NCBI GenBank assembly: GCA_029572815.1
Contig: JAKPUQ010000209.1
Coordinates: forward strand, 1-64,000
Length of the DNA: 64,000 bases
Reading direction: 5' to 3'
Origin: Bacillota bacterium
Lineage (GTDB): Bacteria; Bacillota; Clostridia; Oscillospirales; Ruminococcaceae
Numbering within the stretch: the first letter of the stretch is position 1; each line of letters begins with the position of its first letter. This document shows, piece by piece, positions 10,840 through 49,498 of the stretch. Below the pieces are notes generated by a model. That model had not been told where the DNA came from, did not search any database, and saw nothing but the letters and a program-made list of their open reading frames with translations. Position numbers and translations under genes: made by a program.

Positions 10840-10869
10840 CGTTCATCACCTCACAAAAATATACGATAC

Positions 10870-10916: not shown

Positions 10917-10951
10917 GCAGAAAAGTGCCGGCGATTTTATGGTGCAAAAAG

Positions 10952-10974: not shown

Positions 10975-10982
10975 CTTTCCTG

Positions 10983-15073: not shown

Positions 15074-15631
15074 ATTTTCTCCGTAACTGTTATCTTTTCG
15101 CCATCGAACTCGGTAATGAAGCCGTGTCCGTTTGTGACCTGCCAGTGGTAGTAGTCCTGATGGGGCTGCGCAAAGCGCTCAAGTATCGCCATAATAGTGC
15201 CGCCGTGGACTACGAATGTGGCACTGCTCCCCTCGGGCACCTTTGCTATTGACGCAAGAAAGCCTGCAACGCAGCGCTCCTTGAAATCCGCAGGGTCCTC
15301 CCCCCTCGGGAAAGGCGCTCACGCCGCCGCTGTCTATCCATTTCTGATACCTGCTGTCCGTGGAAAGCTCGATGTAGTTCCTGCCCTCAAAGGCACCGAA
15401 ATCACACTCTCTCAGCTCCTCGCAGATGATGGGAGCCTTGCCTGGATATATGAGCTCCGCCGTCTGTATGCACCGCTTCATGGGACTGGTTATGAGCACT
15501 CCGCAGGGAGGGTAGTCAGTCTTCATCAGCTCGGCGATACCCGAGAAGGAAAGGGGCTCGTCAGTCCTGCCCACATAGCGCATTTCCAGGTTGCCCTCGG
15601 TCTTTCCGTGGCGTATGAAGTCAACCCTCAC
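15070..15631 (-). pseudogene. cobC: Alpha-ribazole phosphatase CobC (histidine phosphatase), frame broken
   Basis: Removes the 5'-phosphate of alpha-ribazole-phosphate or adenosylcobalamin phosphate. The N-terminus VDFIRHGKTEGN is the phosphohistidine RHG motif, and EELRECDFGAFEG is a family block. The likely start is GTG at 15631 with GGAG upstream. The frame derails in a six-C run at 15300-15305 (G6 on the coding strand). With one base fewer it reads FPEGEDPADFKERC and then FVVHGGTIMAIL, including the second catalytic His, and stops at 15070 in a TGA that overlaps the cbiB ATG (186 residues). Probably intact in the organism. Confidence 0.82.
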
Positions 15632-16019
15632 GGAGAGCTCCCTTGATGTAGGTGGGGATACCGCAGATAACACGTATCACCGTATCGCTCTCACTTGCTA
15701 TCATGCAGCCGCATCTGCCCGTCGCCTCACGGCGGACACGCTCAGCCTTGACCAGTGGGACTATGCCGCAGCCTATCTCGTCCATGATGACCAGAACGTC
15801 CTTGTTAGTCTCGCAGAGACGCTTAGTGAACTGCACAGGGTCAACACCCTCCGCCAGCAGCTTTGCTATGAGCTTATGATAGCTCTTTATGCAGACTGCG
15901 GAGAAGACCTCCTCAAAATCACAGGTGTTGCCGTTGACCATATCTGCCTCATCTATGCCGAAAAGCTCAGTGGCACAGCCTATCTTGCCCTGATATGCTC
16001 CTCCGATTATCATTTTCAT
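15621..16019 (-). CDS. Short CobU-like P-loop protein of unknown role
   Basis: A 132-residue protein beginning MKMIIGGAYQGKIG, which resembles the GGxxSGKS P-loop of CobU, with a central IMDEIGCGIVP segment like the CobU Walker B region. It is about 40 residues shorter than CobU and has Ile-Gly where kinases need Ser/Thr after the P-loop Lys. A full CobU is encoded at 16782-17303, so this is a divergent paralogue, perhaps non-catalytic. It sits between cobS and cobC in the operon. The function is unknown. Confidence 0.6.
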   Translation of the reverse strand: MKMIIGGAYQGKIGCATELFGIDEADMVNGNTCDFEEVFSAVCIKSYHKLIAKLLAEGVDPVQFTKRLCETNKDVLVIMDEIGCGIVPLVKAERVRREATGRCGCMIASESDTVIRVICGIPTYIKGALREG

Positions 16020-16020
16020 A

Positions 16021-16788
16021 TCACATGACCTCCATTATTCTGTATGTAAGCGCAGCAGAAGCTGCAATGACCAGTTCGCACACCTGCAGGAACCAGCCTG
16101 CAAGGTCTCCTGTAATACCGCCGAACTCCTTGTATGCCATACAGCGGTAGTATAAAAGAGTCAGCAGAGCCGCCGCCGAAGCCGCTGCACCTGCTCCGGG
16201 ACTTATCACAACCATAGATGCCACGGAAACTGCGGACACGATGACAAGAGCTGTTATGGTAGCCCGTTTATGAGCAGGAGCGGTAAAGCTTTGCAGGCTC
16301 CCTTCCTTTTTTGCAGCGCGGAATGTTACAGCTGCCAGTCCGCTGAGAGACCGTGAAAGCACATATCCTACGCAGACCACCGCCGCTGCGGAGAGAGCTC
16401 TCAGCTCAGTGAAAAACGCAGTATAAAGCACAAGATAAAGCCCCAGCTTTATTGCCGCAAATGCACCTATATGTGAGTCGCTGAGTATCTTCAGCTTTTT
16501 CTCCCTGTCTCCCCATGAAGCCCTGGCGTCGCAGGTATCGCAGAAGCCGTCAAGGTGAATCCCGCCTGTGACCATGACAGTGATGCCCACAGCACCTGCG
16601 GCATAGAGGATACTGCCGATGTGAAGCACTCCGCACAGGTACCGCCACCCAAGCACCAGTCCGCCGATGACTGCTCCCACAAGTGGGAAAAAGCACAGGG
16701 AAAACCGTCTGTTCTTCTCGTTCCATTCGGGTCTCGGAACGGGGATACGGGAGTACATGAGCAGTGCCGAAAGCAATGAATTCAGCAT
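16021..16788 (-). CDS. cobS: Adenosylcobinamide-GDP ribazoletransferase
   Basis: Membrane enzyme joining adenosylcobinamide-GDP with alpha-ribazole (phosphate) to complete the cobamide. It has six to seven hydrophobic helices and the metal-binding GGIHLDGFCDTCDA motif characteristic of CobS. I use the ATG at 16788, which overlaps the cobU stop, because the longer frame adds a non-family N-terminus. It ends one base before the next gene starts. Confidence 0.93.
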   Translation of the reverse strand: MLNSLLSALLMYSRIPVPRPEWNEKNRRFSLCFFPLVGAVIGGLVLGWRYLCGVLHIGSILYAAGAVGITVMVTGGIHLDGFCDTCDARASWGDREKKLKILSDSHIGAFAAIKLGLYLVLYTAFFTELRALSAAAVVCVGYVLSRSLSGLAAVTFRAAKKEGSLQSFTAPAHKRATITALVIVSAVSVASMVVISPGAGAAASAAALLTLLYYRCMAYKEFGGITGDLAGWFLQVCELVIAASAALTYRIMEVM

Positions 16789-17303
16789 ATAAGACGTCCC
16801 TTGCGGACTATCGGTATACCGTAAACGCACTCCACCACATTGTCGGCAAGCTCAGCGATACGGCGGTTTATTATCGCCATCTGCTTTATGTATGCCATAG
16901 TGTCGGGAGAGTAATCGTTGCCGTCGCTGCCCACCTCGTTGGTGACGATGACCAGCTCCTCTGTCTTTTCTGAGAGCCGCTTTATGCCCTCAACGATCTT
17001 TTTCGCAGGGTCAAGCACCTCAGTGCCCACAAACATCTCATTCGCACAGAGATTACCCACGCACTCCAGCAGCACGCCGCTGCCCTCGGGTATCTCCGTA
17101 TCGCCTATATCACGCAGTCTTTCAACGGTAACATAGTTCTTGCCGCAGCGCATCTCAACATGACGGGCGATTATCTCCTCAGCATCGTCCCCCACGGGAT
17201 TCATGGTGGCGATATAGTATTTCTGCCCCTCAAAGCGATCCAGCACCCTCTCAGCGTAACCCGATTTACCGCATTTAGTTCCTCCTGTTACCAGTGTGAT
17301 CAT
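16782..17303 (-). CDS. cobU: Adenosylcobinamide kinase / phosphate guanylyltransferase
   Basis: Bifunctional enzyme that phosphorylates adenosylcobinamide and adds GMP. The P-loop TGGTKCGKSGYAE is at the N-terminus. RHVEMR carries the His usually guanylylated, and TNEVGSD is the Walker B-like motif. 173 residues is the normal size. The ATG overlaps the cobT stop by four bases. Confidence 0.94.
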   Translation of the reverse strand: MITLVTGGTKCGKSGYAERVLDRFEGQKYYIATMNPVGDDAEEIIARHVEMRCGKNYVTVERLRDIGDTEIPEGSGVLLECVGNLCANEMFVGTEVLDPAKKIVEGIKRLSEKTEELVIVTNEVGSDGNDYSPDTMAYIKQMAIINRRIAELADNVVECVYGIPIVRKGRLIC

Positions 17304-18349
17304 TTCAGTTCCACATACCTTTCTATCCCCGCGCTCTCAAAGCGGTGGGAATTATAGTAAAGCGCCGACGCTCCGTCAAGAAGCGGCAGCAGCAATATTC
17401 CTCCTGTGCCCTCGCCAAGCCTGAGACTGCCGTCGATAACGGCTCTGAGCCCCAGCCTTTCGAGAAGCATTCTTCCCGCAGGCTCCGCAGAAACATGGCC
17501 TGCAAGCATATAGTCCTTGCAGTCGGGGGCGAGCATTGAAGCAAGCACCGCCGAAACTGCTGATATAACACCGTCTATGATGACAGTTACGCCGTAAACG
17601 GCTCCCCCCAGGAAAAGTCCCGTCATGCCTGCTATCTCGAAGCTTCCGAGCTTTGCCATGAGCCGGACTGCATCGCCGTCACAGGGAGAGTTAACAGCAA
17701 TGGCGCGCTTGACAGCGTTTATCTTGCGGCGGAGCCCCTCGGTGGTGAGTCCGGCTCCCCTGCCTGTGACTGCCTCGGGAGGGAGCCCCAGTATCACCGA
17801 CGAAAGGGCAGCTGTGGGAGTTGTGTTGCCAATGCCCATCTCTCCCGTAACAATGAGCTTTACGCCCTTTTCTGCCAGTTCCTTCACAATGTCCATACCC
17901 ACAGCAATAGCGGTTTCAGCCTGACTTACCGTCATGGCAGGACCTGCTGCGATATTTCCCGTACCGTGGGCGATCTTCCTGGTGATGGTATTCTCACAGG
18001 AGGAGTCACCCTTCATGCCGATGTCAACAGACAGCACCTCTGCTCCGTAGACAGCCGCAAGAGCGTTTATGTTGGACCTTCCGCAGGCGATAGCCTCAGC
18101 GCAGGCAAGGGTCACGGAGCTGTCGGTCTGGGTAACGCCCTCTGCGGTCACGCCGTTGTCGCCGCACATGACTACCACCGCACGCCGCGAAATATCGGGG
18201 CTGTCGGTTTTCTGCACCGCAGCTATCCTGTCCCACATTTTCTCCAGGACACCGAAGCTGCCGAGGGGCTTAGCCACGCCGTCCCAGTGCTCCTGAGCCT
18301 TTGCAGCGAATGACCTGTCCGCAGGTCGGATAAGCTTCAACCTTTCCAT
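17300..18349 (-). CDS. cobT: Nicotinate-nucleotide-dimethylbenzimidazole phosphoribosyltransferase
   Basis: Activates the lower-ligand base to its alpha-ribotide. The 349 residues carry family blocks MCGDNGVTAEGV, GEMGIGNTTPTAAL, TGRGAGL and, near the C-terminus, LRLGEGTGG with the catalytic Glu. No 5,6-dimethylbenzimidazole synthesis genes (bza, bluB) are visible here, so the natural base cannot be inferred. It overlaps cbiA by 13 bases. Confidence 0.95.
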   Translation of the reverse strand: MERLKLIRPADRSFAAKAQEHWDGVAKPLGSFGVLEKMWDRIAAVQKTDSPDISRRAVVVMCGDNGVTAEGVTQTDSSVTLACAEAIACGRSNINALAAVYGAEVLSVDIGMKGDSSCENTITRKIAHGTGNIAAGPAMTVSQAETAIAVGMDIVKELAEKGVKLIVTGEMGIGNTTPTAALSSVILGLPPEAVTGRGAGLTTEGLRRKINAVKRAIAVNSPCDGDAVRLMAKLGSFEIAGMTGLFLGGAVYGVTVIIDGVISAVSAVLASMLAPDCKDYMLAGHVSAEPAGRMLLERLGLRAVIDGSLRLGEGTGGILLLPLLDGASALYYNSHRFESAGIERYVELK

Positions 18350-19689
18350 TTGACACCTCCGTAGGCGGCGCAGGAAGCAGCAAAGCGCTCAGCCAGTCTG
18401 ACGTCCGAATAAAAGTAGAGATGTGGAAATCCCGCGTACATTTCGGAAGTCGCGTGAACACACTTCCAGCTTCTTCCGTCGGACTTGGCAGCGGTGAAGT
18501 CTGCTCCGCAGTCCGTGCTGTCCCAGTAGTGGAATTCGTGGGCAGGAAAGCTGTCCCCCTTGCGACAGAGAAGACAATCCTTTTCGGCAGTCAAAGTGAC
18601 ATAGCCGAAACGCTGAAGCCTGCCGGTCTCAAAGGCGGTGCCCTTTATTACACCGACCATTGGGAATTCCGCACCGTCAGCAGTTCTTATACTGTCATGG
18701 AGATACATGAAGCCGCCGCACTCGGCAATAGTTGGAAGTCCGCTTTCGACCGCCGTCTTTATGCACTCTCTCATGGAGCCGTTTGCCGCCAGTTCCTCCC
18801 CGTGAAGCTCGGGATAGCCGCCGCTGAGGATGAGTCCGCAGCAGTTTTCGGGCAGCTTTTCGTCCTCAATGGGTGAAAAGTATTCAACGGTGCAGCCAAG
18901 CTTCTTCAGCAGGCTGATATTCTCGGAGTAGGTAAAGCAGAAAGCACGGTCCGCCGCTACAGCTACCTTTGGCGAGAAATCCGTACATACTCTGTGCAAT
19001 TCTTGCGCTGTAAACTGCGGAAAGCTTTTTTCGGACACTTCTATGAGCCTGTCAAGGCGAATATGCTGCTCCGCAAGCCTTCCAAGCTCCGCAGTTTTCT
19101 CCCTGAGGTCAGCTATCTCCGCAGCGGTGACAAGTCCCAGTCTGCGACTCTCTATACCCGGACTTTTCGGCGGCATACAGCCGAAATACTCAGTCTCCAG
19201 CTCACTGCACAGCCTCTCCGCCATGGGAATGAGTCTTTCAGGGAGCCTGTTAAAAACGAAGCCAGCTATATTATTGGGGACCTTGTATGCGAGAAAGCCC
19301 TTCATGACAGCGCCGATAGACTCCCCCGAGCCCTTGCAGTCCAGGACTACAACAGCAGGAGTGTCGGTAATGTCAGCCACAGAGTGTGCCGAGCCCCTTC
19401 CGTCAGCGCCGTCATAGTAGCCCATAACGCCCTCTATCACGGATATATCGGAATTCTGACCGTTCTCCCACAGAAGCTTCCTTATGCAGTCATCGCCACA
19501 GAAAAAGCTGTCCAGATTATGAGCGTCCGTGCCGATGATACTGCTGTGGAACATGGGATCGATATAATCGGGTCCGCATTTGAAGGAGGCGACCGTCAGC
19601 CCCCGCGCCTTCAGTGCCGCAAGAACTGCACAGGTGACCGTGGTCTTTCCGCAGCCACTGTGAGTTCCGCCAATGAGTATTCTTTTCAT
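18337..19689 (-). CDS. cbiA: Cobyrinic acid a,c-diamide synthase
   Basis: ATP- and glutamine-dependent amidation of cobyrinic acid side chains a and c. The N-terminal P-loop is GGTHSGCGKTTV, and the C-terminal amidotransferase domain has the nucleophile in IAECGGFMYL and a catalytic His near HEFHYW. The 450 residues match the family. It overlaps the upstream cbiE-T by four bases. Confidence 0.95.
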   Translation of the reverse strand: MKRILIGGTHSGCGKTTVTCAVLAALKARGLTVASFKCGPDYIDPMFHSSIIGTDAHNLDSFFCGDDCIRKLLWENGQNSDISVIEGVMGYYDGADGRGSAHSVADITDTPAVVVLDCKGSGESIGAVMKGFLAYKVPNNIAGFVFNRLPERLIPMAERLCSELETEYFGCMPPKSPGIESRRLGLVTAAEIADLREKTAELGRLAEQHIRLDRLIEVSEKSFPQFTAQELHRVCTDFSPKVAVAADRAFCFTYSENISLLKKLGCTVEYFSPIEDEKLPENCCGLILSGGYPELHGEELAANGSMRECIKTAVESGLPTIAECGGFMYLHDSIRTADGAEFPMVGVIKGTAFETGRLQRFGYVTLTAEKDCLLCRKGDSFPAHEFHYWDSTDCGADFTAAKSDGRSWKCVHATSEMYAGFPHLYFYSDVRLAERFAASCAAYGGVKWKG

Positions 19690-20876
19690 ACAAGCTTCCT
19701 TTTTATAATAAATACAGGGTTAAGTGCAGACATCATCGTATGCGAGCCAACTTTATTAGTCCTTGCGACTGCTATCTGGGCAATTTCGGCTTCAAATCCG
19801 AGCTCATCAAATACTGCTGTACACTCTGCAAGAGTTTCCAGTGAGACCGCAGTAACGGTCAGTCTGATATTGCTGTTTTTTTCATAGGCTGCCTGAACTA
19901 TCTGCCTCAGCTCTCCCCCCGAACCGCCAATGAAAATGCAGTCGGGACGGGGCAGGTCTCCGACGATCTCCGCCGCTCTGCCAGTATGTATGACAATGTT
20001 ATCGCAGCCGAATTTACGCCTGTTGCGGTCAATGAGCTCCGCAGCCTCGGGCGACTTCTCAACGGAGTGGACAGTTCCCCGCTCACAGCGCACAGCCATC
20101 TCCACGGACACAGAGCCCGTTCCGCCGCCGATGTCCCAGCATACGTCCGTCCTGCCGATGTCAAGTCCGGAAACGGCAATTGCGCGTACCTCCGCCTTAG
20201 TCATGGGTACCTTTCCCCTGTCGAACCTTTCATCGGGGATACAGCCCGGTACACTGCGCTCATAGTCAGGATTTTCCGCCAGCAGCACACACAGCTCCGC
20301 GGTAGTTATATCTGAAAGCTCTGAAGCTGTTCCGCTCCTTATCCTCTCGTCGGCATATCCAAGTCTTTCGCCGATATGCACCATAACTCCGCCCATGCCG
20401 TAGTCACAGAGCCGCCTGCACACCTCAGCCGCCGTTATATCTCCGCCAAGGAGAAAAAATGTCAGCCTGTGGGCTCTGACCGCCCTGACAATGTTGCCGC
20501 TTTTGCCGTGAAGGCTGACAAAATTGCAGTCCGACCAATCCATTTTCAGCTTTGAGAAAAGGTAAACAGGTGAAGCTATACCGCAGATGAACTCCACATC
20601 ATGGTCAGCAAGCGCCTCCGCAAGCTGCGCTGCACCGCTGAAAAAGCCGCAGTCTCCCGACATCAGAACCGCCGCTGTAGAAAAGCTGTTCTCTTCAAGA
20701 TATCGAGCTATTTCGGCGCTCCTGTACTCCTCAAGGACAGGCTTTCCGCAGGAGCGGTAGTCCTCCACCATTCGTTTTGCACCGATAATGACCTCGGCGG
20801 CTTCAATTGCAGCTCTCCCTTCGGCAGTCAGCGTCCTGCTGCCGTCGGCTCCCGTACCTACTATGTATACCTTCAT
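19686..20876 (-). CDS. cbiET: Precorrin-6Y C5,15-methyltransferase (CbiE-CbiT fusion)
   Basis: The first half (about 1-200) is CbiE, a tetrapyrrole methylase starting VYIVGTGADGSRTLT. The second half (about 205-396) is CbiT, a Rossmann methyltransferase with VCWDIGGGTGSVSVEMA. Together they methylate C5 and C15 and decarboxylate the acetate side chain. The fused form is the same arrangement as CobL. Confidence 0.94.
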   Translation of the reverse strand: MKVYIVGTGADGSRTLTAEGRAAIEAAEVIIGAKRMVEDYRSCGKPVLEEYRSAEIARYLEENSFSTAAVLMSGDCGFFSGAAQLAEALADHDVEFICGIASPVYLFSKLKMDWSDCNFVSLHGKSGNIVRAVRAHRLTFFLLGGDITAAEVCRRLCDYGMGGVMVHIGERLGYADERIRSGTASELSDITTAELCVLLAENPDYERSVPGCIPDERFDRGKVPMTKAEVRAIAVSGLDIGRTDVCWDIGGGTGSVSVEMAVRCERGTVHSVEKSPEAAELIDRNRRKFGCDNIVIHTGRAAEIVGDLPRPDCIFIGGSGGELRQIVQAAYEKNSNIRLTVTAVSLETLAECTAVFDELGFEAEIAQIAVARTNKVGSHTMMSALNPVFIIKRKLV

Positions 20877-20880
20877 ATTG

Positions 20881-21630
20881 TCACCTCCTCATGGCGTAAA
20901 TCAGGGACTTTATCTCCTCAATGGTGCTGCCCTTTTCCTCGGGACGGGCAAGCACTATCGCCTTTATACCGCACTTTTCCGCAGCCTCCAGCTTCTCGGG
21001 AAAGCCACCCGCAGCACCGCTCTCCTTTGTCACCAGAAGCGCCGAACTGCTCCGTTTTATATGAGCCATGTTCTGCTCAACGCTAAAGGGTCCCTTTTCC
21101 AGGATAAGGTGCTCATCAGGATAGCCCATTTCACTGCACAGCGCCCTTACGCTGTCCGTGGGAAGTGCTCTCACCCAGACCCTTTCGGCGTAGTTTTCAA
21201 CTTCCGTAAGCTTCGGCAGTTCCTTGCTGCCGAGAGTGCTGAGCACACTTCCGCTGCTGCTGTTTATGAGCTTCACCAGCTCGTCCATGTCCCTGACGGC
21301 AACGCAGTCCCCAAGCTCCGATGAGCTGCGCAGGAGTCTGTGATAGGGCAGTTCCGCAGCCTTGCAGGCGGCGATAATATTAGCTGTGACCTCAGTGGCG
21401 TATGGGTGGGTGGCGTCAATGACCGCCCTGCACTCCAGCTCTCTCATGAGGTCTGCCATTTCACCGCTGTCAAGCCTTCCCACAAGGATACGAATTCCAT
21501 TTTCGTGAGGTAGCAGCTTTCCCCCGTATTCCGTAGCCACGGAAATCGCCGCAGTAACTCCGCAGGAACAGCAATACTGAGCAAGCTCTCTGCCCTCGGT
21601 AGTTCCGCCGAATATAAGCAGCTCACACAT
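20881..21630 (-). CDS. cbiJ: Precorrin-6A / cobalt-precorrin-6A reductase
   Basis: NAD(P)H-dependent reduction of the macrocycle. The 249 residues begin LLIFGGTTEGRELAQ (nucleotide-binding start of CobK/CbiJ) and contain VIDATHPYATEVT and LVTKESGAAGG, both family signatures. It overlaps cbiH by eight bases. Confidence 0.94.
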   Translation of the reverse strand: MCELLIFGGTTEGRELAQYCCSCGVTAAISVATEYGGKLLPHENGIRILVGRLDSGEMADLMRELECRAVIDATHPYATEVTANIIAACKAAELPYHRLLRSSSELGDCVAVRDMDELVKLINSSSGSVLSTLGSKELPKLTEVENYAERVWVRALPTDSVRALCSEMGYPDEHLILEKGPFSVEQNMAHIKRSSSALLVTKESGAAGGFPEKLEAAEKCGIKAIVLARPEEKGSTIEEIKSLIYAMRR

Positions 21631-22351
21631 TTCTGTAGCCCCTTGGCGTCACCATTTTTCCGTCTATTACTCTGGTCTCTGAGTTGCCGATGAACACGGT
21701 GGTGAACATATCAACGTCAGTCCCGCGGAGCTCCCCGAGAGTGAGGACTTTGCTCTCCTGCCCCTCTCTGCCGATATTCCGCACATATCCGCAGACCGTA
21801 TCCGAATGGCGGTACTGAAGGATAATATCGCAGGCTCGCATAAGGTAGTCCGCACGTTTTTTCGATGAGGGATTGTACAGGGCGATGACGAAGTCCCCCT
21901 CCGCCGCACAGCGAAGCCGCTTCTCTATCTTCTCCATGGGGGTAAGCAGGTCGGAAAGGCTGATGATGGCAAGGTCGTGGGTCATTGGCGAGCCAAGGAC
22001 AGCTCCGCCGCTGAAGGCTGCCGAAACACCAGCCACCACCTCAATATCCGCGTCGGGATAGTCCGCAGAAAGCTCATAGGCAAGCCCAGCCATACCGTAT
22101 AGCTGACTGTCGCCGCTGCAAACCAGAGACACGGTCTTTCCGCTCTGTGCAAGGTCAAGTGCAAGGGCAACGCGGTCACGCTCCTGTCTCATGCCTGTGG
22201 AAAGGCACTCCTTTTCGGGAAAGAAGCCCTTTATCTGCTCCGCATAGACGGTGTAGCCAACCACAACATCGCTGTTCATCACAGCCTGCTGAGCTTCCAG
22301 AGTCATGCCCTGACGGCTGCCGCAGCCAATGCCCACAACGTAAAGCTTCAT
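21623..22351 (-). CDS. cbiH: Precorrin-3B / cobalt-precorrin-3 C17-methyltransferase
   Basis: SAM-dependent methylation of C17 with ring contraction. The 242 residues start LYVVGIGCGSRQGMTLEA and contain VSLVCSGDSQLYGMAG and VVAGVSAAFSGGAVLG, the tetrapyrrole methylase blocks. It has no extra C-terminal iron-sulfur domain. It overlaps cbiF-G by four bases. Confidence 0.94.
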   Translation of the reverse strand: MKLYVVGIGCGSRQGMTLEAQQAVMNSDVVVGYTVYAEQIKGFFPEKECLSTGMRQERDRVALALDLAQSGKTVSLVCSGDSQLYGMAGLAYELSADYPDADIEVVAGVSAAFSGGAVLGSPMTHDLAIISLSDLLTPMEKIEKRLRCAAEGDFVIALYNPSSKKRADYLMRACDIILQYRHSDTVCGYVRNIGREGQESKVLTLGELRGTDVDMFTTVFIGNSETRVIDGKMVTPRGYRNV

Positions 22352-24141
22352 AGCACGTTCCTCTCAAAATCCAGATATACGGGAGCCTCAGCCGCCGCCA
22401 CGGTAACTCCGTCAAAGGCAGTCTTATGAAGCACCAGCCTGCCGCCGCTGCGCAGCACCGCACTGCGCTCGCAGACATTGTCCGCACCTGTGGTCTCGCG
22501 GACAAAGTCAGAGGAGGCAAAATCGCCGCTCACCGCCATAAGCTCATCGGCGGTATAGGTCCGCAGCTCAATATCCCTGCGCTCACAGAATTTGAGAAGC
22601 CCCTCCTCCCGCGCTTTCAGGTCAATGGAAGCCACACCGCAAACTCTCTCAGGGTCTATCCCCGCCTGACTGAGAGCTGAATTCACTGCACTTTCGATTG
22701 CTTCGGCAGAGGTATCCTTTTTACAGCCTATACCCAGAACTATATTCCTCGGGACAAGCCTGAGAGTAACGTCAAAGGGTTTCACACCGGGCTCTGTACC
22801 AACATAGATACCGGTTCTGCACACGCCGAACTCTGTCAGCTCGTCGGGCAGTCCGCCGTGTCTGTACTCCGTGGAAAAGCCCACCTTTTCATCGTCCAGC
22901 ACCTCCGCAGCTATCTCCTTTGCAGCAGCAAGGTCGGTGATGATAAGCCCGTTTGCCACTGCGAAGCTGTCAGGCGAGAACTGTCCGCCAACGTCCGTAG
23001 CCGTAGTTATTACGGGAGTATTTCCCAGAGCCTCCGCCAGCACCTCCGCCAGTCGGTTGGCACCGCCGATATGACCGGAAAGCACGGGGATAACGAAGCG
23101 TCCGCAGTCGTCCATGACTATGACCGCAGGGTCGTCAGCCTTTGTGCCCAGCAGAGGAGCCACCGCTCTCACCGCAATACCGCAGGCACAGACGAAAATA
23201 AAGGCGTCGGAGCGCTTGAAAAGCCGCCCCACCATGCTTCCCATATTCCAGAACACCGCAGAATTGTCATCGGTGTGCTTGTGAAAACAGTAGCGGCTGA
23301 CCTTATGCTCACCGCTGAGGACCTCCGCAGCCCTTTCCGAGAGCTGTCTGCCCTTCTCCGTGACGGAAAAAATCGCTATATTCATTTTGGCTTCTGCCTT
23401 TCTGAACTCAGTTTCAAAATTTTTGTCATAGAGCTTTGAAAGCTCGTAATCGTCTCCCAGGAAGTCTCCCACAGTTATGAGAGCAGTCTTGCTTATGCCG
23501 TTTTCACGGGCAGCCTTTGCAAGAGTTCCCACGGTACAGCGCACTACCTTCTCGTCCTGCCATGTAGCTTTGTAGACTATCGCCGCAGGAGTTTCGGTGC
23601 TGTAGCCGCCCTCAATAAGCTTTCCTGACAGCTCCTCTGTCATTGAGGCGCTGAGGAAAATGACCATAGTCGCATGGTGAGCGGCAAGGCTCTCAATGCT
23701 CTCCCTTTCGGGGACGGGAGTCCGTCCTGCCATTCGGGTGAGTATCACCGTCTGTGACACATCAGGCAGTGTGTATTCCGCCTTCAGAGCCGCAGCAGCT
23801 CCGCAGAAGGAGCTGACGCCGGGAGTGACATTGTATGATATACCCAGAGCGTCCAGTCTGTCCATCTGCTCCCTTATGGCGCCGTAAACCGAAGGGTCTC
23901 CCGTGTGGAGCCTTACGGTGTGAAGTCCCTCAGCCTCAGCCTTTTCCATGACCTCTATGACCTCATCAAGGTGCATGAGGGCGCTGTTGTATATCCTGCA
24001 CTCCTGCTTTGCATAGTCAAGGAGCTGAGGGTTCACAAGCGAGCCTGCGTAGATTATAACATCAGCCTGCTCCAGCAGCCGCTTTCCTCTGAGAGTTATA
24101 AGGTCAGCAGCACCGCAGCCTGCTCCCACAAAATCAACCAT
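22348..24141 (-). CDS. cbiFG: CbiF-CbiG fusion (C11-methyltransferase and lactone hydrolase)
   Basis: Residues 1 to about 250 are CbiF/CobM (FVGAGCGAADLITLRG, LHTGDPSVYGAI, NVTPGVSSFCGA), which methylates C11. Residue 253 starts a complete CbiG with its own Met (MNIAIFSVTEKG), its N-terminal region and GHIGGANRLAEVLAEALG. CbiG opens the delta-lactone of cobalt-precorrin-5A. The presence of CbiG together with CbiD shows the anaerobic (cobalt-early) route. The 597-residue fusion places two consecutive steps on one chain. Confidence 0.94.
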   Translation of the reverse strand: MVDFVGAGCGAADLITLRGKRLLEQADVIIYAGSLVNPQLLDYAKQECRIYNSALMHLDEVIEVMEKAEAEGLHTVRLHTGDPSVYGAIREQMDRLDALGISYNVTPGVSSFCGAAAALKAEYTLPDVSQTVILTRMAGRTPVPERESIESLAAHHATMVIFLSASMTEELSGKLIEGGYSTETPAAIVYKATWQDEKVVRCTVGTLAKAARENGISKTALITVGDFLGDDYELSKLYDKNFETEFRKAEAKMNIAIFSVTEKGRQLSERAAEVLSGEHKVSRYCFHKHTDDNSAVFWNMGSMVGRLFKRSDAFIFVCACGIAVRAVAPLLGTKADDPAVIVMDDCGRFVIPVLSGHIGGANRLAEVLAEALGNTPVITTATDVGGQFSPDSFAVANGLIITDLAAAKEIAAEVLDDEKVGFSTEYRHGGLPDELTEFGVCRTGIYVGTEPGVKPFDVTLRLVPRNIVLGIGCKKDTSAEAIESAVNSALSQAGIDPERVCGVASIDLKAREEGLLKFCERRDIELRTYTADELMAVSGDFASSDFVRETTGADNVCERSAVLRSGGRLVLHKTAFDGVTVAAAEAPVYLDFERNVL

Positions 24142-25276
24142 TTTCTTCCTCCGTGATAGCCTTTATGAGCTCCTCCGCAAGAGCCGTCCTCACTTGCAGC
24201 TGACGCTTATAGGAAAACGCCAGAGCCGCAATAGGAACAGAGTCCTTTACTCTCGCGCGGAGGTAGCTGTCCATGCGCTGAGAAAGTATCTCCGCAGTTT
24301 TTTCAAGGTATCCGCCTTTATCAAGTATATCCATGGCAGCGTCCGCAGTAGCACAGTCGGGCAGCCTTTTCAGGGTCTCCGTATCAGCTCCCGCAAGCAC
24401 ACCGCAGGTGACAAGGACGTCCATTCTGCCGTCCGCCCATGAGGAGTGGGTGTTCATAATACCTGCACCCAGCTTTACCAGCTTTCCGATGTGACCCACG
24501 ATAAGTATGGACTCAAAGCCCAACTCCATGCCTATGTCGATGGCATCGCCGATGAAGTTGCTGCAAGTGACGCTCCTCTCCAGTGAAAAGGGCAGCTCTC
24601 TCTGAACGAAGTCCTCGCTGTAATTGCCGATAGTAAGCAGCATATTCCGCTGACCTGCGGCACGGCGGATATTAGCCTCCGTGCGTATAGTTTCTATAAC
24701 TGCGGTATTGCTCATGGGCTCCACGATACCGCTGGTACCAATGACGGAGATACCGTCCTCTATCCCCATGCGAGGGTTGAAGGTCTTTTTCGCCAGCTCC
24801 ACCCCCTGAGGTATGGAGACCGTAACCTCAAAACCTCCCGAGTAGCCGTATTTCTCGGCAATTTCCGCAACAGCCCCACTTATCATGCGCCTCGGCACCG
24901 TATTTATGGCAGCGTCCCCCACGGGACGGTCAAGCCCTGCCTTTGTGACAACTCCCACGCCCTCGCCGCCGAGTATAACAGTTCCTTCGGGGATAAGTCT
25001 CACACGGGAGTAAACTCTTATGCCATTGGTGATGTCGGGGTCGTCGCCGCTGTCCTTTACTATGGCGCAGGAAGCGCTTCCCTCATTCAGCTCAGCATCC
25101 ACCACATCAAGGTCAAGCAATATGCCCTTGGGAGTCATGAGCTTCACCCCCGTGACCTCATGCCCCGTGAATATCATCTCAGCCGCAGCCTTTGCAGCTG
25201 CTGCCGCGCAGGAGCCCGTGGTATATCCGCATCTGAGTTTCTCCGCGCCCCTGTAAACATATTCCTCAAGTCTCAT
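24134..25276 (-). CDS. cbiD: Cobalt-precorrin-5B C1-methyltransferase
   Basis: Methylates C1 in the anaerobic pathway. The family signature LRCGYTTGSCAAAAAKAA is near the N-terminus, followed by GGEGVGVVTKAGL and LLTIGNYSEDF. I use the ATG at 25276, which overlaps the end of cbiL; the longer open frame adds 29 residues with no family match. Confidence 0.94.
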   Translation of the reverse strand: MRLEEYVYRGAEKLRCGYTTGSCAAAAAKAAAEMIFTGHEVTGVKLMTPKGILLDLDVVDAELNEGSASCAIVKDSGDDPDITNGIRVYSRVRLIPEGTVILGGEGVGVVTKAGLDRPVGDAAINTVPRRMISGAVAEIAEKYGYSGGFEVTVSIPQGVELAKKTFNPRMGIEDGISVIGTSGIVEPMSNTAVIETIRTEANIRRAAGQRNMLLTIGNYSEDFVQRELPFSLERSVTCSNFIGDAIDIGMELGFESILIVGHIGKLVKLGAGIMNTHSSWADGRMDVLVTCGVLAGADTETLKRLPDCATADAAMDILDKGGYLEKTAEILSQRMDSYLRARVKDSVPIAALAFSYKRQLQVRTALAEELIKAITEEENG

Positions 25277-25961
25277 CTCTGCACTCCCCGACAATGAACA
25301 CCGTAAAATAGCCAAGGTCATCGGGTACCTGGTCAAGGCTTCCGAATATCCTCTCGTTATCAAGTCCGCAGTTCTCTATTACAGAAGTACGCAGGGCAAG
25401 TCCCTTTTTTCGCAGTAATGCAATAAGCTCACCGCTTTTGCTGCCTGTTTTCATGATGACCTTTGTGCCCCTGAGGTCGAGGAGTTTCTCAAAGTCCTCA
25501 CAGCCATAGGGCAGTATGTGCAAAGGCTCGCTGCCCAGACACAGTGGCTTTCCGAGAGAGGCAGCAGCAGCGCTGAAACTTGTGACTCCTGCGCATATCT
25601 CTGCTTTGAAGCCTCGTTCCTCCACGCGCTGCGCAATACGGCTGAATGTGGAATACACGGAAATATCCCCAAGTGTAGGAACTGCAACGTCATCACTTTT
25701 CAGAAGTCCGCAGAGTATTTCCGCAATCTCGTCGTAGTTTCTGTCAAGGGCTTCCCTGTCCCTGCACATAGGAAAGTCCAGATACACCTTACGCTTGCCC
25801 GACATGTCCGCAGCCTGCTCCGCAATCGACAGAGCCAGACTGTTCTCCCCGTGAGTACGTGGAACCGCGATAACGCCGCAGCTCTCCAGTATGCGTACAG
25901 CCTTCACCGTCATGAGCTCAGGATCACCTGAGCCCACGCTTACGCCGTATAGAGTTCCCAT
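25266..25961 (-). CDS. cbiL: Precorrin-2 / cobalt-factor II C20-methyltransferase
   Basis: First dedicated corrin methyltransferase of the run. The 231 residues start LYGVSVGSGDPELMTVKA and contain PTLGDISVYSTFSRIA and EICAGVTSFSAAAASLG. It is the first cobalamin gene in the operon, and its ATG overlaps the stop of rsmA by one base, so it has no promoter or riboswitch of its own. Confidence 0.94.
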   Translation of the reverse strand: MGTLYGVSVGSGDPELMTVKAVRILESCGVIAVPRTHGENSLALSIAEQAADMSGKRKVYLDFPMCRDREALDRNYDEIAEILCGLLKSDDVAVPTLGDISVYSTFSRIAQRVEERGFKAEICAGVTSFSAAAASLGKPLCLGSEPLHILPYGCEDFEKLLDLRGTKVIMKTGSKSGELIALLRKKGLALRTSVIENCGLDNERIFGSLDQVPDDLGYFTVFIVGECRDET

Positions 25962-43290: not shown

Positions 43291-43319
43291 TTGACAGCGT
43301 ATTTGCCCTGTGTTATAAT
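43291..43319 (+). promoter_or_regulatory. Promoter of the corrinoid-uptake operon
   Basis: Perfect consensus TTGACA (43291-43296), 17-bp spacer, TATAAT (43314-43319). The transcript begins near 43326, at the 5' edge of the riboswitch. Confidence 0.88.
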
Positions 43320-43329
43320 GAACCTGTAA

Positions 43330-43456
43330 TATGGAGTCTGAAACTGAGGGAAGCACGGTGAAAATCCGTCGCAGCAGTCACTGCCGTACAGTCGGATCGC
43401 TCGTCAGGCTCAGAGCAGGTAATGAACGTTTTCGGGCAAGGGGAAACGTATGCCAA
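43330..43456 (+). promoter_or_regulatory. Cobalamin (B12) riboswitch
   Basis: The aptamer core GAGGGAAGCACGGTGAAAAT followed by CCGTCGCAGCAGTCACTGC matches the conserved GGGAA..GGTGAAAATCC..GC.GxC..CACTG signature of cobalamin riboswitches. GTCAG and an AGCAGGT element follow at the expected order. The peripheral part is compact. The genes behind it encode transcobalamin-like proteins and an ECF transporter, which agrees with the ligand. Confidence 0.9.
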
Positions 43457-43493
43457 AAACTTCGCAGTACCCCTGCGGAGCTGTTTTGCTGCG

Positions 43494-43522
43494 CTTTTCT
43501 GCACCGCGGAAAGGCCTTTTTT
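43494..43522 (+). terminator. Riboswitch-controlled terminator
   Basis: Nine-base-pair stem CTTTTCTGC/GCGGAAAGG (43494-43502, 43506-43514) with a three-base loop and T6 at 43517-43522, about 35 bases before the first start codon. An additional 8-bp hairpin (43460-43467 with 43473-43480) lies between aptamer and terminator. This points to transcriptional attenuation by bound cobalamin. Confidence 0.8.
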
Positions 43523-43556
43523 GTTGCCTGTAAATAAATTTTAAGGAGTAGGTATT

Positions 43557-44480
43557 ATGAAAAAATCATTCGCTATGGCAGCAGCTCTGGTAATGTCATT
43601 CTCAGCTGTAGCTATGAACGCCTCAGCAGAGGGCGAGACAAAGGTCTATGTCACTATCTCTGACAGCAACAGTGCACTGGTACTGACACAGGAGCCCGTA
43701 AATGTTACCGATATCGACGGCGACGGCAAGCTCACTGTCAACGATGCTCTCTACATCGCTCACGAGAACAACTACGAGGGCGGCGCAGCAGCAGGCTACA
43801 AGACATCTGTGGGACAGTACGGTCTGGGTCTTGACGTACTCTGGGGCAAGGAAAATCAGCAGTCCTTCGGCTACTATGTAAACTCAAAGATGGCTAATGG
43901 TCTTACCGACGAGGTCAAGGACGGCGACTACCTTGATGCTCTCACCTTCCCCGATCCCTCCGACCTTGACTATCACTACAGCTGGTTCGACGCAAGAGAG
44001 GGCGAGGGTGAAGCCGACAAGGAAGTAACTCTCCAGCTCAAGGCTCTCTCCTTCGACGCTTCATGGGCTCCTGTTGAGAACCCCGTGGAGGGCGCTAAGA
44101 TAACTATCAACGGCAATGATACAGACTTCGTTACCGATGCTGAGGGCAAGGTCACAGTAAAGTTCACAGAGGCAGGAAAGAACGTTGTAAGCGCTAAGGG
44201 CGGCAATACCAAGATAGCTCCTCCCTCTTATATAATGAACATCAGCGGCGAGTCTGCCGAGACTACAACTACAACAACTACTGCCACAACAACTTCTTCC
44301 ACAACCACCACTACTACAACTACCGCAAAGGCTACTTCAAAGTCACAGGCTGCAAAGACCACTACCGCAAGCAAGAGCAACTCCCCCAAAACAGGAGACT
44401 CAGGCGCAGCTATGGCTGTAGCTGTACTGGGCGCAGCAGCCGCAGCAGCATTCACTCTCAGACGCAGAAATGAAAAGTAA
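43557..44480 (+). CDS. Wall-anchored DUF4430/transcobalamin-like corrinoid-binding protein
   Basis: 307 residues. A signal peptide (about 1-25) is followed by a DUF4430-like domain (about 28-150) with an inserted acidic loop DIDGDGKLTVNDAL that resembles a single EF-hand or dockerin loop, and the hallmark GYYVNSK...VKDGDYLDAL. Next come an Ig-like domain (about 170-225), a Thr-rich linker and a sorting signal: SPKTGD, a hydrophobic helix and RRRNEK. Family knowledge plus the B12 riboswitch suggest it presents or captures corrinoids at the wall. It overlaps the next gene by 11 bases. Binding is inferred, not shown. Confidence 0.78.
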   Translation: MKKSFAMAAALVMSFSAVAMNASAEGETKVYVTISDSNSALVLTQEPVNVTDIDGDGKLTVNDALYIAHENNYEGGAAAGYKTSVGQYGLGLDVLWGKENQQSFGYYVNSKMANGLTDEVKDGDYLDALTFPDPSDLDYHYSWFDAREGEGEADKEVTLQLKALSFDASWAPVENPVEGAKITINGNDTDFVTDAEGKVTVKFTEAGKNVVSAKGGNTKIAPPSYIMNISGESAETTTTTTTATTTSSTTTTTTTTAKATSKSQAAKTTTASKSNSPKTGDSGAAMAVAVLGAAAAAAFTLRRRNEK

Positions 44481-46331
44481 GATACTCACGGCTTGCCTGA
44501 GTACCGCACTGATATTTGCAGTATTGCCGAACGTTGTTCCCATACAGTCGGCATACTGTGAGCATACCGTCGGTGAGGTCGATGACCTTATCGGCGGTAT
44601 CGTTGATTATAAGCTTAATCAGACGGGCTCGGGAAGCGTTGAAGACTGGCTGTCGGGGGATATTGCCGCAGGTGCAGGGACCTCCACGGACTGGTATGCA
44701 CTCACCCTCAGCCAGAGCGGATACAGCGACCTCTCCGCATACAGGAGCGCCCTTGAGAGCTATCTCAGCAGCAACAATGTGTCCTCCGCAACCTCACGGG
44801 AGAAGTACGCACTGGGACTCTGTGCCTCTGGAAGCACAAGCAGCTACATCACCGATACCCTTGAAAGCTCCATAGGCAGGCAGGGTATCATGAGCTGGGT
44901 CTACGGGCTCCATATCCTCAATAACGGCTACACCTGCCCCTCCTACACGGCTGAGTCCGTGGCGGACTATATCCTGTCCCTGCAGCTTGATGACGGGGGT
45001 TGGGCGCTGTGGGGGAGACTACGGCGACATTGACGTTACCGCCATGACCATTCAGGCTCTTGCTCCTCAGTATGACAGCAGCGGCGCTGTTTCAGAGGCG
45101 GTGGACAGGGCTGTGGACTTCCTCTCGGAGCGTCAGAAGGAGGACGGCGGCTACGAGAGCTTCGGCAATCCCAATGCAGAGAGCACGGCGCAGGTGCTTA
45201 TGGCAGTATCGGCTCTGGGCATAGACTGCCGGTACGATGACCGCTTCATCAAGGAGGGCAACGACCTCATCGACGGCATAGCACAGTACCGTCTGCCCGA
45301 CGGAAGCTTCTGCCACACAAAGGACGGGGGCTTCAACGAGACCGCCACGGTGCAGGCATATTACTCCTTTGTGGCATTCAGGCGAATGACCGAGGGGAAG
45401 TCTCCCCTGCTGGTGCTTGACAACAAGCAGACGGCTCAGCCCTCACAGGGCGGCAGTAATGAGGGCGGCGGCAGCAGTAAGGTCAGCTCTCAGGGCGGCG
45501 GCTCCTCAGCAAATGAGGGGGGGAAGCGCAGGCACAACGGCTCCCACAACGGGAACAATCTCCACCACAGCAAATGCAGGCAAGTCCACGGGTACGACCT
45601 CCACGGGCACAGGGACTACCACTGCAAAGCAGACTGAAACGGTAACTTCCCTTTCTGCAACATCGGGGGCTTCACAGACCGGGACTGCCGTAACAGCAGC
45701 ACAGGAGCTTACCGAGAAGCAGTCACGGAGAAGCTACAAGCCCTTTGCCATACTTATTGTACTGGCAGCGGCGGCGGTCATCGCACTCATCATCTTCATC
45801 ATGGGCAAACGCAGCTACAAGAACTTCATCTTCCTGGGAGCAGCGGCGGCTGCGGCGATAGCGGTCATTCTCCTGACGGACATCCGCTCACCCGAGGAGT
45901 ATTACAGCGGCGAGAAGAAGGAGAAGGACAATGTCATCGGCTCTGTCACCATGGAGATACGCTGCGACACTATCGCAGGCAGGTCCGACTCTGAGCATAT
46001 CCCTGCGGACGGCGTGATACTAGCTCCCACAGCCTTCGACATTGAGAGCGGCGACACGGTCTTCGACATACTCACCGAGGCTGCACAGACCTACGGCATA
46101 CAGGTGGAGAACAAGGGCAGCGCAGGCAGCTCTCACGGCATGGTCTACATCTCGGGCATAAACTACATCTACGAATTCGATTTCGGCGACCTTTCGGGCT
46201 GGGTCTATCATGTCAACGGCATCACTCCCTCGCGTAACTGCGGAGAGTATGTCCTCAGCGACGGAGACCGCATAGAATGGCTCTACACCTGCGAGGTGGG
46301 TCACGACCTTAACGAGGTATACGAGGAATGA
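44470..46331 (+). pseudogene. Intrinsic-factor/transcobalamin-like membrane protein (two one-base frame breaks)
   Basis: After correction, 619 residues. A signal peptide (about 1-29) precedes an alpha-alpha-barrel domain (about 30-325) of prenyltransferase/terpene-cyclase-like repeats (SLQLDDGGWALWGDYGDID, RQKEDGGYESFG, YRLPDGSF). A long Ser/Gly/Thr linker, two membrane helices joined by a tiny basic loop (MGKRSYK), and a C-terminal DUF4430 domain (GDTVFDILTEA, LSGWVYHVNG, LSDGDRIEWLY) follow. This is the domain content of animal cobalamin carriers. Breaks are in G5 (45011-45015) and G7 (45517-45523); one G less in each restores the frame. The stop overlaps the next ATG. Confidence 0.8.
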
Positions 46332-47206
46332 GAAGCTTTTCCGAATACAATCCCATAGCAGTGGCGGTGTGGTTTTTCAGCGTCACGGGGGTGGCAATGT
46401 TTTGCAGCTACCCTGTACTCATGGTAATATCACTGGCGGGAGGAGTGCTGTTCTTCCTAAAGCGCAACGGCTTCACCCACGGGAAGACTCACCTGTTTTT
46501 CTGGCTGCTTTTCGCAGTCCTTGCACTGGCAAACCCACTTATCTCACACAACGGCAAGACGGTGCTCTTCGTCATGAACCACAATCCCGTCACTCTGGAA
46601 GCGGCGCTTTACGGCGTAAATTCGGCAGTTATGATAATCGGCGTCCTGTACTGGTTCCGCTCCTTCACACAGATAATGACCTCAGAGAAGCTCCTCTACA
46701 TCACGGGAGCTCTCTCCCCCAAGCTTTCACTGGTGCTGTCAATGGCGCTGAGGTTCGTCCCACTGTTCAGCAGGCAGTCCGCAAAGATAAGCGCTGCACA
46801 GACTGCCATGGGACTATACAAAGAGGACAATATCGTGGACGACATAAGGGGCAAATCCCGTATCTTCTCCATTATGGTCACCTGGGCGCTGGAGAACGGC
46901 ATTATCACCGCCGACAGCATGGAGGCAAGGGGCTTCGGCACAGGCAGACGTACTCAGCTGCGGCGCTTCGGCTTCCGAACGGGAGATATACTGCTCCTGA
47001 CAGCGACGCTGCTGCTTCTTGGGGTGACAGCTGCCGCCATCGGTACGGGAGCCCTCAGCTTTGAGTTCTATCCGTCCATGGAGATGAAAGAGCTCACATT
47101 CCCCGGTATTTCGGGGATAATTTCCTACGCAGCACTGGTTATGCTGCCCATATTCATAGAAACGGAGGCGGAACTGAGATGGAAATACTTGCGGTCAGGG
47201 ATATGA
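46328..47206 (+). CDS. ecfT: ECF transporter T component
   Basis: Transmembrane coupling subunit of an energy-coupling-factor importer. 292 residues with about six hydrophobic helices. The Ala-Arg-Gly coupling motif appears as SMEARGFGTG, with a second, less clear coupling region upstream (ALRFVPLFSRQSAKI). ATGA overlap with the preceding gene and a 28-base overlap with the ATPase gene show tight coupling. Confidence 0.9.
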   Translation: MRSFSEYNPIAVAVWFFSVTGVAMFCSYPVLMVISLAGGVLFFLKRNGFTHGKTHLFFWLLFAVLALANPLISHNGKTVLFVMNHNPVTLEAALYGVNSAVMIIGVLYWFRSFTQIMTSEKLLYITGALSPKLSLVLSMALRFVPLFSRQSAKISAAQTAMGLYKEDNIVDDIRGKSRIFSIMVTWALENGIITADSMEARGFGTGRRTQLRRFGFRTGDILLLTATLLLLGVTAAAIGTGALSFEFYPSMEMKELTFPGISGIISYAALVMLPIFIETEAELRWKYLRSGI

Positions 47207-48810
47207 CCTTCACCTACCCCAATTGTAAAAAGCCTGCCATTGAGAATATCTCCCTCACCCTTGAACGTGGGGAGCTGGCTGTGCTCTGCGGGGCTACGGG
47301 AAGCGGCAAGTCCACTCTCCTGCGTATGCTGAAACGGGAGCTGTCTCCCATGGGACAGGTCTCGGGCAGTGTCATTTTCTGCGGAAAGGCTCTCGGGGAG
47401 CTCTCCGACAGGGAGTCCGCCTCGGAGATAGGCTTCGTCATGCAGAAGCCTGAGCAGCAGATAGTCACCGACAAGGTCTGGCACGAGCTTGCCTTCGGAC
47501 TGGAAAATCTGGGTACTCCCCCTGCTCATATATCACGCAGGATAGCGGAAATGGCAAGCTATTTCGGTATCGGTGACTGGTTCGGCAGGGACACTGCGGA
47601 GCTTTCGGGCGGTCAGAAGCAGCTCCTCAACCTGGCTTCCGTTCTTGTCATGCAGCCAAAGCTCCTCATTCTGGACGAGCCCACGGCTCAGCTTGACCCC
47701 ATTGCCGCCTCGGACTTCATTGCAACTCTGAGGCGTATCGCCAACGATTTCTCCATAACCATTCTCATGGCGGAGCACCGTCTGGAGGAGGTGGTCCCCC
47801 TGTGCGACAGGCTCCTTGTAATGGACGGCGGCAAGCTCATCGGAGAGGGCTCTCCCTCGGAGGTACTGGCAGGGCTGGGTGACAGGAAGGACATAATGTG
47901 CGGTATGCCTGCGGCATCACGGCTTTTCGCGGCTCTGGGAGAACAGGGCAAGGCTCCCCTTACAGTCCGTGAGGGCAGGAACTTCATAGAATCCACCTAC
48001 GCAAACTCCGTAAGAGCCCTTGAAAGTAAAACAGCTCCTCACGATGGAGAAGCTGCGCTGGAATATGAGGGAGTCTGCTTCCGCTACGCTAAAAACGGGG
48101 CGGACGTTCTGGACAGTCTCAGTCTCAGGGTGAACACGGGGGAGCTTTTCTGTATCCTCGGGGGCAACGGCTCGGGCAAGACCACGGCTCTCTCGGCGGC
48201 GGCAGGACTGCTGAAGCCGTACAGCGGCAAAATACGGGTTTTCGGCAAAAAGCTCAAAGACTACAAGAACCGCTCACTGTACCGTGAGTGCCTTGCCATG
48301 CTGCCACAGGACGTTCAGACTGTCTTTCTCAGGAACACCGTCAGGGAGGAGCTGGAGGATTGCAATGCGGAGCTGAAAGAGCTTCCCTACGACCTCTCTC
48401 CCCTGCTGGAGCAGCACCCCTACGACTTATCGGGAGGTCAGCAGCAGCTTGTCGCCCTTGCAAAGGTACTGGCTGCACATCCCCGTCTGCTGCTTCTGGA
48501 CGAGCCCACAAAGGGACTTGACGCGGCGGCAAAGGAGAGCTTCATAGAGCTGCTGAAAAGGCTCAAAGCCGACGGTCTCACCGTTGTCACCGTCACCCAC
48601 GATGTGGAGTTCGCAGCCCTCTGCGCCGACAGGTGCGCCATGTTCTTCGGGGGAAAGATAGTCTCTGAGGGAGCTCCCCGTGAGTTCTTCTCGGAAAACA
48701 GCTTCTATACCACCGCGGTGAGCCGCATGACAAGGGGCTATTTCGACGGAGCCGTCACCCTTTCCGACGCCGCAGAGCTTTGCCGCTTAAACGGCAGGAA
48801 GGAGAGCTGA
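47179..48810 (+). CDS. ecfA: ECF transporter ATPase, fused A-A' subunits
   Basis: 543 residues with two complete ABC ATPase domains. The first has the P-loop CGATGSGKST, Q-loop MQKPEQQIV, signature LSGGQKQ and Walker B LLILDEPTAQLD. The second has GGNGSGKTT, signature LSGGQQQ and LLLLDEPTKGLD. In most Firmicutes the two ATPases are separate genes; here they are fused. It powers the EcfT/S importer of this operon. Confidence 0.93.
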   Translation: MEILAVRDMTFTYPNCKKPAIENISLTLERGELAVLCGATGSGKSTLLRMLKRELSPMGQVSGSVIFCGKALGELSDRESASEIGFVMQKPEQQIVTDKVWHELAFGLENLGTPPAHISRRIAEMASYFGIGDWFGRDTAELSGGQKQLLNLASVLVMQPKLLILDEPTAQLDPIAASDFIATLRRIANDFSITILMAEHRLEEVVPLCDRLLVMDGGKLIGEGSPSEVLAGLGDRKDIMCGMPAASRLFAALGEQGKAPLTVREGRNFIESTYANSVRALESKTAPHDGEAALEYEGVCFRYAKNGADVLDSLSLRVNTGELFCILGGNGSGKTTALSAAAGLLKPYSGKIRVFGKKLKDYKNRSLYRECLAMLPQDVQTVFLRNTVREELEDCNAELKELPYDLSPLLEQHPYDLSGGQQQLVALAKVLAAHPRLLLLDEPTKGLDAAAKESFIELLKRLKADGLTVVTVTHDVEFAALCADRCAMFFGGKIVSEGAPREFFSENSFYTTAVSRMTRGYFDGAVTLSDAAELCRLNGRKES

Positions 48811-48811
48811 T

Positions 48812-49498
48812 ATGCTGCTGATAAAAAGCAAAAGGCTCCGCGACACTATCCGCGTGGTGGTGCCCTTCATAGCGGTTCCCCTCATTACAGTCATTGGAGC
48901 CCTCGCCTTCGACGAGAAAAAGCACATAATCATCGCCCTTGCAGTTGCGGTGTCGGCACTGCTGCTCTTTGCGGCAGGCTTCGAGAAGAAGTCCACGGGA
49001 ACGCGCCGCATGGTCATAGCAGCCGTTATGACAGCCCTGTGCTTCGCAGGAAGGTTCATACCCATACTCAAGCCCGTTGCAGCCCTCACCATAATCACTG
49101 CCCTCTATCTGGGCGGAGAAGCAGGCTTCCTTGTGGGAGCCATGTCCGCCATACTCTCAAACTTCTACTTCGGACAGGGTCCCTGGACTGCCTTTCAGAT
49201 GCTTGCCTGGGGACTTATCGGGCTCTTTGCGGGCATACTCTCGGATAAGCTGCTGAAAAGCCGTGCCCTGCTCCTCATCTACGGAGCCGCAACGGGTATC
49301 GCCTACTCATTTATAATGGACGTCTGGACAGTCCTCTGGTACAACCGGGGCTTTGACATAAAGCTCTATCTGGCGGCACTGGTGTCCGCTGTGCCCTATA
49401 CGATAAGCTATGCGGTGTCAAACGTTCTGTTCCTGTATCTCCTTGCAAAACCCTTCGGCGAGAAGCTATCCCGTATCAAGACCAAGTACGGGGTGTGA
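48812..49498 (+). CDS. ECF transporter S component, probably corrinoid-specific
   Basis: 228 residues with about six to seven membrane helices. GRFIPILKPVAALTIITAL and GAMSAILSNFYFGQGPWTAFQM are typical of ECF substrate-binding subunits. It is the last gene of a B12-riboswitch operon with transcobalamin-like surface proteins, so cobalamin or a precursor is the expected ligand (CblT/CbrT-like role). The substrate is inference from context. It begins one base after the ATPase stop. Confidence 0.8.
   Translation: MLLIKSKRLRDTIRVVVPFIAVPLITVIGALAFDEKKHIIIALAVAVSALLLFAAGFEKKSTGTRRMVIAAVMTALCFAGRFIPILKPVAALTIITALYLGGEAGFLVGAMSAILSNFYFGQGPWTAFQMLAWGLIGLFAGILSDKLLKSRALLLIYGAATGIAYSFIMDVWTVLWYNRGFDIKLYLAALVSAVPYTISYAVSNVLFLYLLAKPFGEKLSRIKTKYGV

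What the first reader, a model, noticed from the sequence alone, without database searches (positions are those of the whole stretch)
43291..49498. B12-riboswitch operon combining transcobalamin-like surface proteins with an ECF importer
A perfect promoter, cobalamin riboswitch and terminator control five overlapping genes: a wall-anchored DUF4430-like protein, an intrinsic-factor-like protein, EcfT, fused EcfA-A' and an S component. Known bacterial B12 uptake is mostly BtuBFCD with BtuG-type lipoproteins, or ECF-CbrT. A dedicated Gram-positive surface capture stage made of transcobalamin-like domains, feeding an ECF importer, would be a distinct system. The domain reading and gene order are seen in the sequence; the corrinoid function is inferred from the riboswitch and from family knowledge.
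Basis: partly seen in the sequence, partly recalled or inferred. Interest (0 to 1): 0.88.

Follow-up and report, generated by a model that had tools for sequence, protein, structure and literature searches.

The report
Bacterial intrinsic-factor-like vitamin B12 uptake operon
A Ruminococcus operon with a vitamin B12 riboswitch encodes surface proteins folded like the human B12 carriers (intrinsic factor, transcobalamin) next to a membrane importer; it is a conserved but, as far as we found, untested version of a system whose outline was predicted in 2007.

The parts
43291..43319 (+). sigma-70-type promoter, TTGACA-17-TATAAT
   Evidence: 12 of 12 matches, TG before second hexamer
43335..43410 (+). 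AdoCbl-II cobalamin riboswitch aptamer (RF01689)
   Evidence: 40.7 bits, gathering 36.5, E 2.8e-6; 9 of 19 pairs with two-sided changes in 18 aligned leaders
43493..43522 (+). terminator-like hairpin (43493-43515) and T-run; presumed expression platform
   Evidence: sequence
43557..44480 (+). surfA: signal peptide, transcobalamin-like beta domain (res. 26-138) with EF-hand-like loop, Ig-like domain (about 139-232), Thr-rich stalk, NPKTG wall anchor
44470..46331 (+). intrinsic-factor-like gene: toroid, linker, two TM-like helices, DUF4430 beta domain; two frame changes in this assembly
   Evidence: (PF14478 56.2 bits); intact relatives; structure of an intact relative
46328..47206 (+). EcfT
   Evidence: PF02361 34.1 bits, cut-off 25
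47179..48810 (+). fused EcfA-EcfA' (two ABC domains, 543 aa)
   Evidence: PF00005 in two stretches; TIGR04520 342.2 bits, cut-off 315
48812..49498 (+). S component, CbrT-like
   Evidence: PF07155 43.8 bits, cut-off 26.7; best solved match 6fnp_A, E 1e-8 (single), 3.8e-12 (profile)
10983..25961 (-). context, not part of the operon: B12 biosynthesis cluster of 15 ORFs

Best explanation
This is a corrinoid (vitamin B12 or precursor) capture-and-import operon. When adenosylcobalamin is scarce the riboswitch lets transcription pass the terminator. SurfA, sortase-anchored in the wall, presents a transcobalamin-type beta domain; the second protein, held in the membrane by a TM hairpin, carries an alpha/alpha toroid and a second beta domain on the outside. 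Together they bind corrinoid and pass it to a CbrT-like S component that EcfT and fused EcfA-A' drive with ATP. Shown: parts, order, conservation, predicted folds, riboswitch class, linkage across the phylum. Inferred: corrinoid binding, hand-over, direction of transport, switching direction, and the outside location of both domains of gene 2 (from the N-terminal signal-like helix and a basic loop between the two TM-like helices). In this assembly gene 2 is interrupted, so activity in this very strain is open.
Confidence: 0.85

Rival explanations
1. It is a cobalt importer of the CbiMNQO type under a cobalamin riboswitch, as common in B12 producers (recall).
For: EcfT matches PF02361, named cobalt transport protein; the window encodes B12 synthesis, which needs cobalt.
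Against: No CbiM match in the genome as held, 98.29% complete (PF01891); the S component resembles CbrT; surface proteins have B12-carrier folds.
Confidence: 0.06
2. The ligand is another tetrapyrrole or vitamin (heme, cobinamide only, riboflavin), with the riboswitch sensing B12 status indirectly.
For: PF07155 is named for riboflavin; an ECF-type transporter for heme has been reported (PMC7299338, title and start of abstract seen).
Against: Phylum-wide cobalamin riboswitch linkage; CbrT similarity; adenosyltransferase neighbour in L049.
Confidence: 0.08
3. In this strain gene 2 is a true pseudogene and the operon works without it or is decaying. (This can hold together with the best explanation for the family.)
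For: Two frame changes.
Against: Both lie at G-runs (five and seven bases), where sequencing errors are common (recall); the pieces are 88.7-97.8% identical to the intact protein of R. flavefaciens ND2009 and the other four genes are open.
Confidence: 0.2

Closest known systems
SLBB/transcobalamin-like clade operons with CbiO and CbiQ (Burroughs et al. 2007, PMC1796856)
   Same: transcobalamin C-terminal domain, toroid fusion, wall anchors, second paralogue, ABC ATPase and CbiQ-like gene, predicted B12 scavenging (passages)
   Different: its main text has no occurrence of 'riboswitch' and says such bacteria usually lack key B12 synthesis enzymes; here synthesis genes are in the same window, the S component is identified as CbrT-like, and the toroid sits in the membrane protein, not with the wall anchor
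ECF-CbrT of Lactobacillus delbrueckii (PMC5997447, PDB 6FNP)
   Same: S component related by sequence; ECF module
   Different: L. delbrueckii shares one ECF module among S components (passage); here EcfT and fused EcfA-A' are in the operon together with two surface proteins
Animal transcobalamin, haptocorrin, intrinsic factor
   Same: toroid plus beta domain; the beta domain of surfA aligns over 91-99 residues
   Different: no PF01122 match; in the gene-2 model a low-confidence linker of about 90 residues and two TM-like helices separate the domains; anchored, not secreted
BtuG/BtuH surface B12-binding proteins of Bacteroidetes (PMC8941943, two passages)
   Same: surface capture before an importer (general knowledge); [quoted passage not shown]
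   Different: mainly Bacteroidetes; homology to the proteins here not tested

Membership tests
AdoCbl-II riboswitch RF01689 | covariance model over gathering score | tested here: met
   40.7 bits against 36.5
AdoCbl-II riboswitch RF01689 | binds adenosylcobalamin and switches expression | not testable with these tools
   needs in-line probing or a reporter assay
ECF transporter with dedicated module | EcfT, two EcfA ATPase domains and an S component in one operon | tested here: met
CbrT-type S component | sequence relation to CbrT | tested here: met
   6fnp_A is the only solved chain at E below 0.001; that chain A is the CbrT subunit is inferred from its size and its S-component match
CbrT-type S component | cobalamin/cobinamide binding | not testable with these tools
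   needs purified protein
DUF4430 PF14478 (gene 2) | Pfam score over cut-off | tested here: met
   56.2 bits, cut-off 23.8
DUF4430 PF14478 (surfA) | Pfam score over cut-off | tested here: not met
   a DUF4430 profile built from the surveyed loci also found nothing in 10 surfA proteins
Transcobalamin-type beta domain fold (surfA) | structural match to transcobalamin/haptocorrin beta domains | tested here: met
Eukaryotic cobalamin-binding protein PF01122 | Pfam match | tested here: not met
   none at E up to 10 in three intact gene-2 relatives
CbiMNQO cobalt ECF transporter | CbiM substrate subunit | tested here: not met
   no PF01891 match in the genome as held

The most novel reading that the evidence does not exclude
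A split, wall-to-membrane transcobalamin: surfA's wall-anchored beta domain and gene 2's membrane-tethered toroid act as two halves of one B12 clamp that closes between molecules and relays cargo inward to the S component, and B12 producers use it to recapture or exchange cobamides rather than to meet auxotrophy.
Probability: 0.2. Interest if true: 0.75.

Novelty: new variant of a known kind. Interest (0 to 1): 0.5.

Why it matters
How Gram-positive gut and rumen bacteria take up B12 is poorly known; [quoted passage not shown] About a third of the genomes sampled from the window's phylum carry DUF4430 (80 of 249), and the same folds carry B12 in animals. The operon gives a testable bacterial counterpart of intrinsic factor, and bears on the 2007 proposal that animals obtained theirs from low-GC Gram-positives.

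Tried and rejected
Tried: (1) Foldseek on whole surfA gave no match at E 0.001 or better; the domain signal came from the VIA second look. (2) A DUF4430 profile from the surveyed loci did not find surfA. (3) Idea that the system marks B12 auxotrophs: not borne out. CbiC is present in 39 of 80 DUF4430 genomes and 69 of 169 others (Fisher p 0.27); 26 of 44 full loci lie in genomes with CbiC (this takes the 249 genomes to be the same draw, as their handles suggest). (4) The 50 VIA rows of the gene-2 model list toroid enzymes only; this does not exclude transcobalamin, which Foldseek ranks first. (5) Programmed frameshift in gene 2: not supported, since it is a single ORF in 68 of 69 named loci with the gene (the exception, L145, is in two pieces, the first at the contig start). 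(6) Cupin gene upstream as an operon member: no match among ORFs of the 18 regions searched, 17 from relatives and one from the own genome.
Literature: ten searches (PMC open licences only) listed no experimental test of a bacterial DUF4430/transcobalamin-like protein as such; I saw listings and starts of abstracts, and several papers that name DUF4430 once were not opened. Rodionov 2009 is not held; CbrT background is from passages of PMC5997447.

Full report
Observation. The window is the first 64 kb of contig C192 of a 3.39 Mb genome in 210 contigs. Among 80 named loci its S component is closest to Ruminococcus flavefaciens ND2009 (98% identical). The leader holds a 12-of-12 promoter at 43291-43319, an AdoCbl-II riboswitch at 43335-43410 and a terminator-like hairpin at 43493-43515. 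Folded alone the leader is only a little more stable than shuffles (z -1.81). Five genes follow on the + strand to 49498. The upstream cupin gene had no match in the 18 regions searched (17 relatives, one own).

Gene 2 is interrupted. Its three pieces lie in three frames; the changes fall at G-runs 45011-45015 and 45517-45523. In 9 of 9 same-genus regions that cover it and in 52 of 52 named loci labelled with all five genes it is one open frame. Homopolymer error is the likelier cause; a real lesion is possible.

Importer. EcfT (PF02361), fused EcfA-A' (TIGR04520) and S (PF07155) pass their cut-offs. The S profile finds one solved chain below E 0.001, 6fnp_A at 3.8e-12; 6FNP is ECF-CbrT, shown to transport cobalamin and cobinamide (PMC5997447, passages). 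The genome as held has no CbiM match. The S component is found in 18 of 40 relatives, 12 of 23 of the same genus (two of those distant), so the operon is patchy.

Regulation across relatives. RF01689 exceeds its cut-off in 3 of 10 same-genus regions; RF00174 occurs in two of seven more distant relative regions. In 50 genomes behind named loci, RF01689 appears at E below 1e-4 in 19, of which 18 lie at this operon by coordinates and 12 exceed the cut-off; 24 of 50 had nothing at E up to 1. At that loose limit 7 of 14 control genomes also ring, one over the cut-off. A model from 18 leaders (9 of 19 pairs with two-sided changes) finds the leader in 45 of 61 sources at E below 1e-6, 27 of these not used to build it, in two more weakly and in 14 not at all. 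Of the 55 named loci searched, 39 are among the 45; their leaders end 824-1646 nt before gene 2.

Phylum survey. DUF4430 is in 80 of 249 genomes drawn from the window's phylum (Bacillota by inference; the tool names none) and in 2 of 14 controls. One region per genome was taken for 78 of the 80 (G285, with no place listed, and G000 left out). A listed RF00174 lies upstream on the same strand in 57 of 78, within 8.7 kb, against 0.52 expected by uniform placement (matches picked by hand, limit set after the fact). Of the 21 without, seven are in genomes whose lists were cut, eight in genomes with no RF00174, six have it on other contigs only. EcfT is found in 55 of 78, an S-like protein in 57; 44 have all three and 10 have none. 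These labels come from profiles built here, so distant members may be missed. Ten first genes in + orientation were scanned: DUF4430 in 9 of 10, SLH in 8, a Gram-positive anchor in 1, a toroid-type match at E up to 1e-4 in 7, over the cut-off in 4. So elsewhere toroid and wall or S-layer anchoring tend to share one protein, with a small DUF4430 protein next; in Ruminococcus the anchored protein has the beta domain without a toroid, and the toroid is in the membrane protein. That partition is the variant reported here.

Producers too. The same window encodes CbiL, CbiD, CbiF-G, CbiH, CbiJ, CbiE-T, CbiA, CobT, CobU, CobS, CobC, CbiB, CobD, CbiP and CbiC on the - strand at 10983-25961. CobD, CobC, CobS, CobU and the CbiG part stay below their NCBIfam cut-offs and are named by best match; CbiC passes in Pfam (257.4 bits). 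Early steps and cobalt insertion were not checked. The genome has two B12-binding domains over the cut-off; the methionine synthase activation domain is marginal (25.0 bits, cut-off 25). CbiC is in 26 of 44 genomes with the full locus, and DUF4430 and CbiC are not associated either way (39 of 80 against 69 of 169, p 0.27). This differs from the 2007 statement that such bacteria usually lack key enzymes.

Known or new. Burroughs et al. 2007 (PMC1796856; passages seen, not the whole text) predicted the kind. Ten searches of the held open library listed no experimental work on a bacterial DUF4430 protein as such; that is not the whole literature, and papers naming DUF4430 in passing were not opened. 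I file it as a new variant of a known, predicted kind: strong conservation and regulation evidence, no biochemistry.

Noticed in passing
window 10983-25961, - strand: B12 biosynthesis cluster of 15 ORFs with CbiF-CbiG and CbiE-CbiT fusions; the window's only Rfam riboswitch over the gathering score is the one at 43335-43410.
   Followed up: partly
L037 (G000:C80) 7362-12935: Class-I cobalamin riboswitch followed by a lipoprotein-like protein with a CbiK (cobalt chelatase) domain, a protein with a NEAT match just below cut-off (30.5 bits, cut-off 32.8), a periplasmic-type binding protein, FecCD and an ABC ATPase. A secreted CbiK plus NEAT under B12 control is odd and may be a second corrinoid system.
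   Followed up: partly
   Followed up: no
L068 (G188) and L072 (G133): Small DUF4430 protein plus S-like protein in genomes with no cobalamin riboswitch match, among genes that look (recall) like lactate racemase, SDR and a biotin-dependent decarboxylase; possibly another ligand.
   Followed up: no
surfA residues 52-60 (window 43710-43736): Invariant EF-hand or dockerin-like residues inside the beta-grasp domain in 66 of 66 aligned family members.
   Followed up: partly
window 40257-42212, - strand: Large secreted-looking protein with regularly repeated segments (leucine-rich, BspA-like by recall) beside the operon.
   Followed up: no
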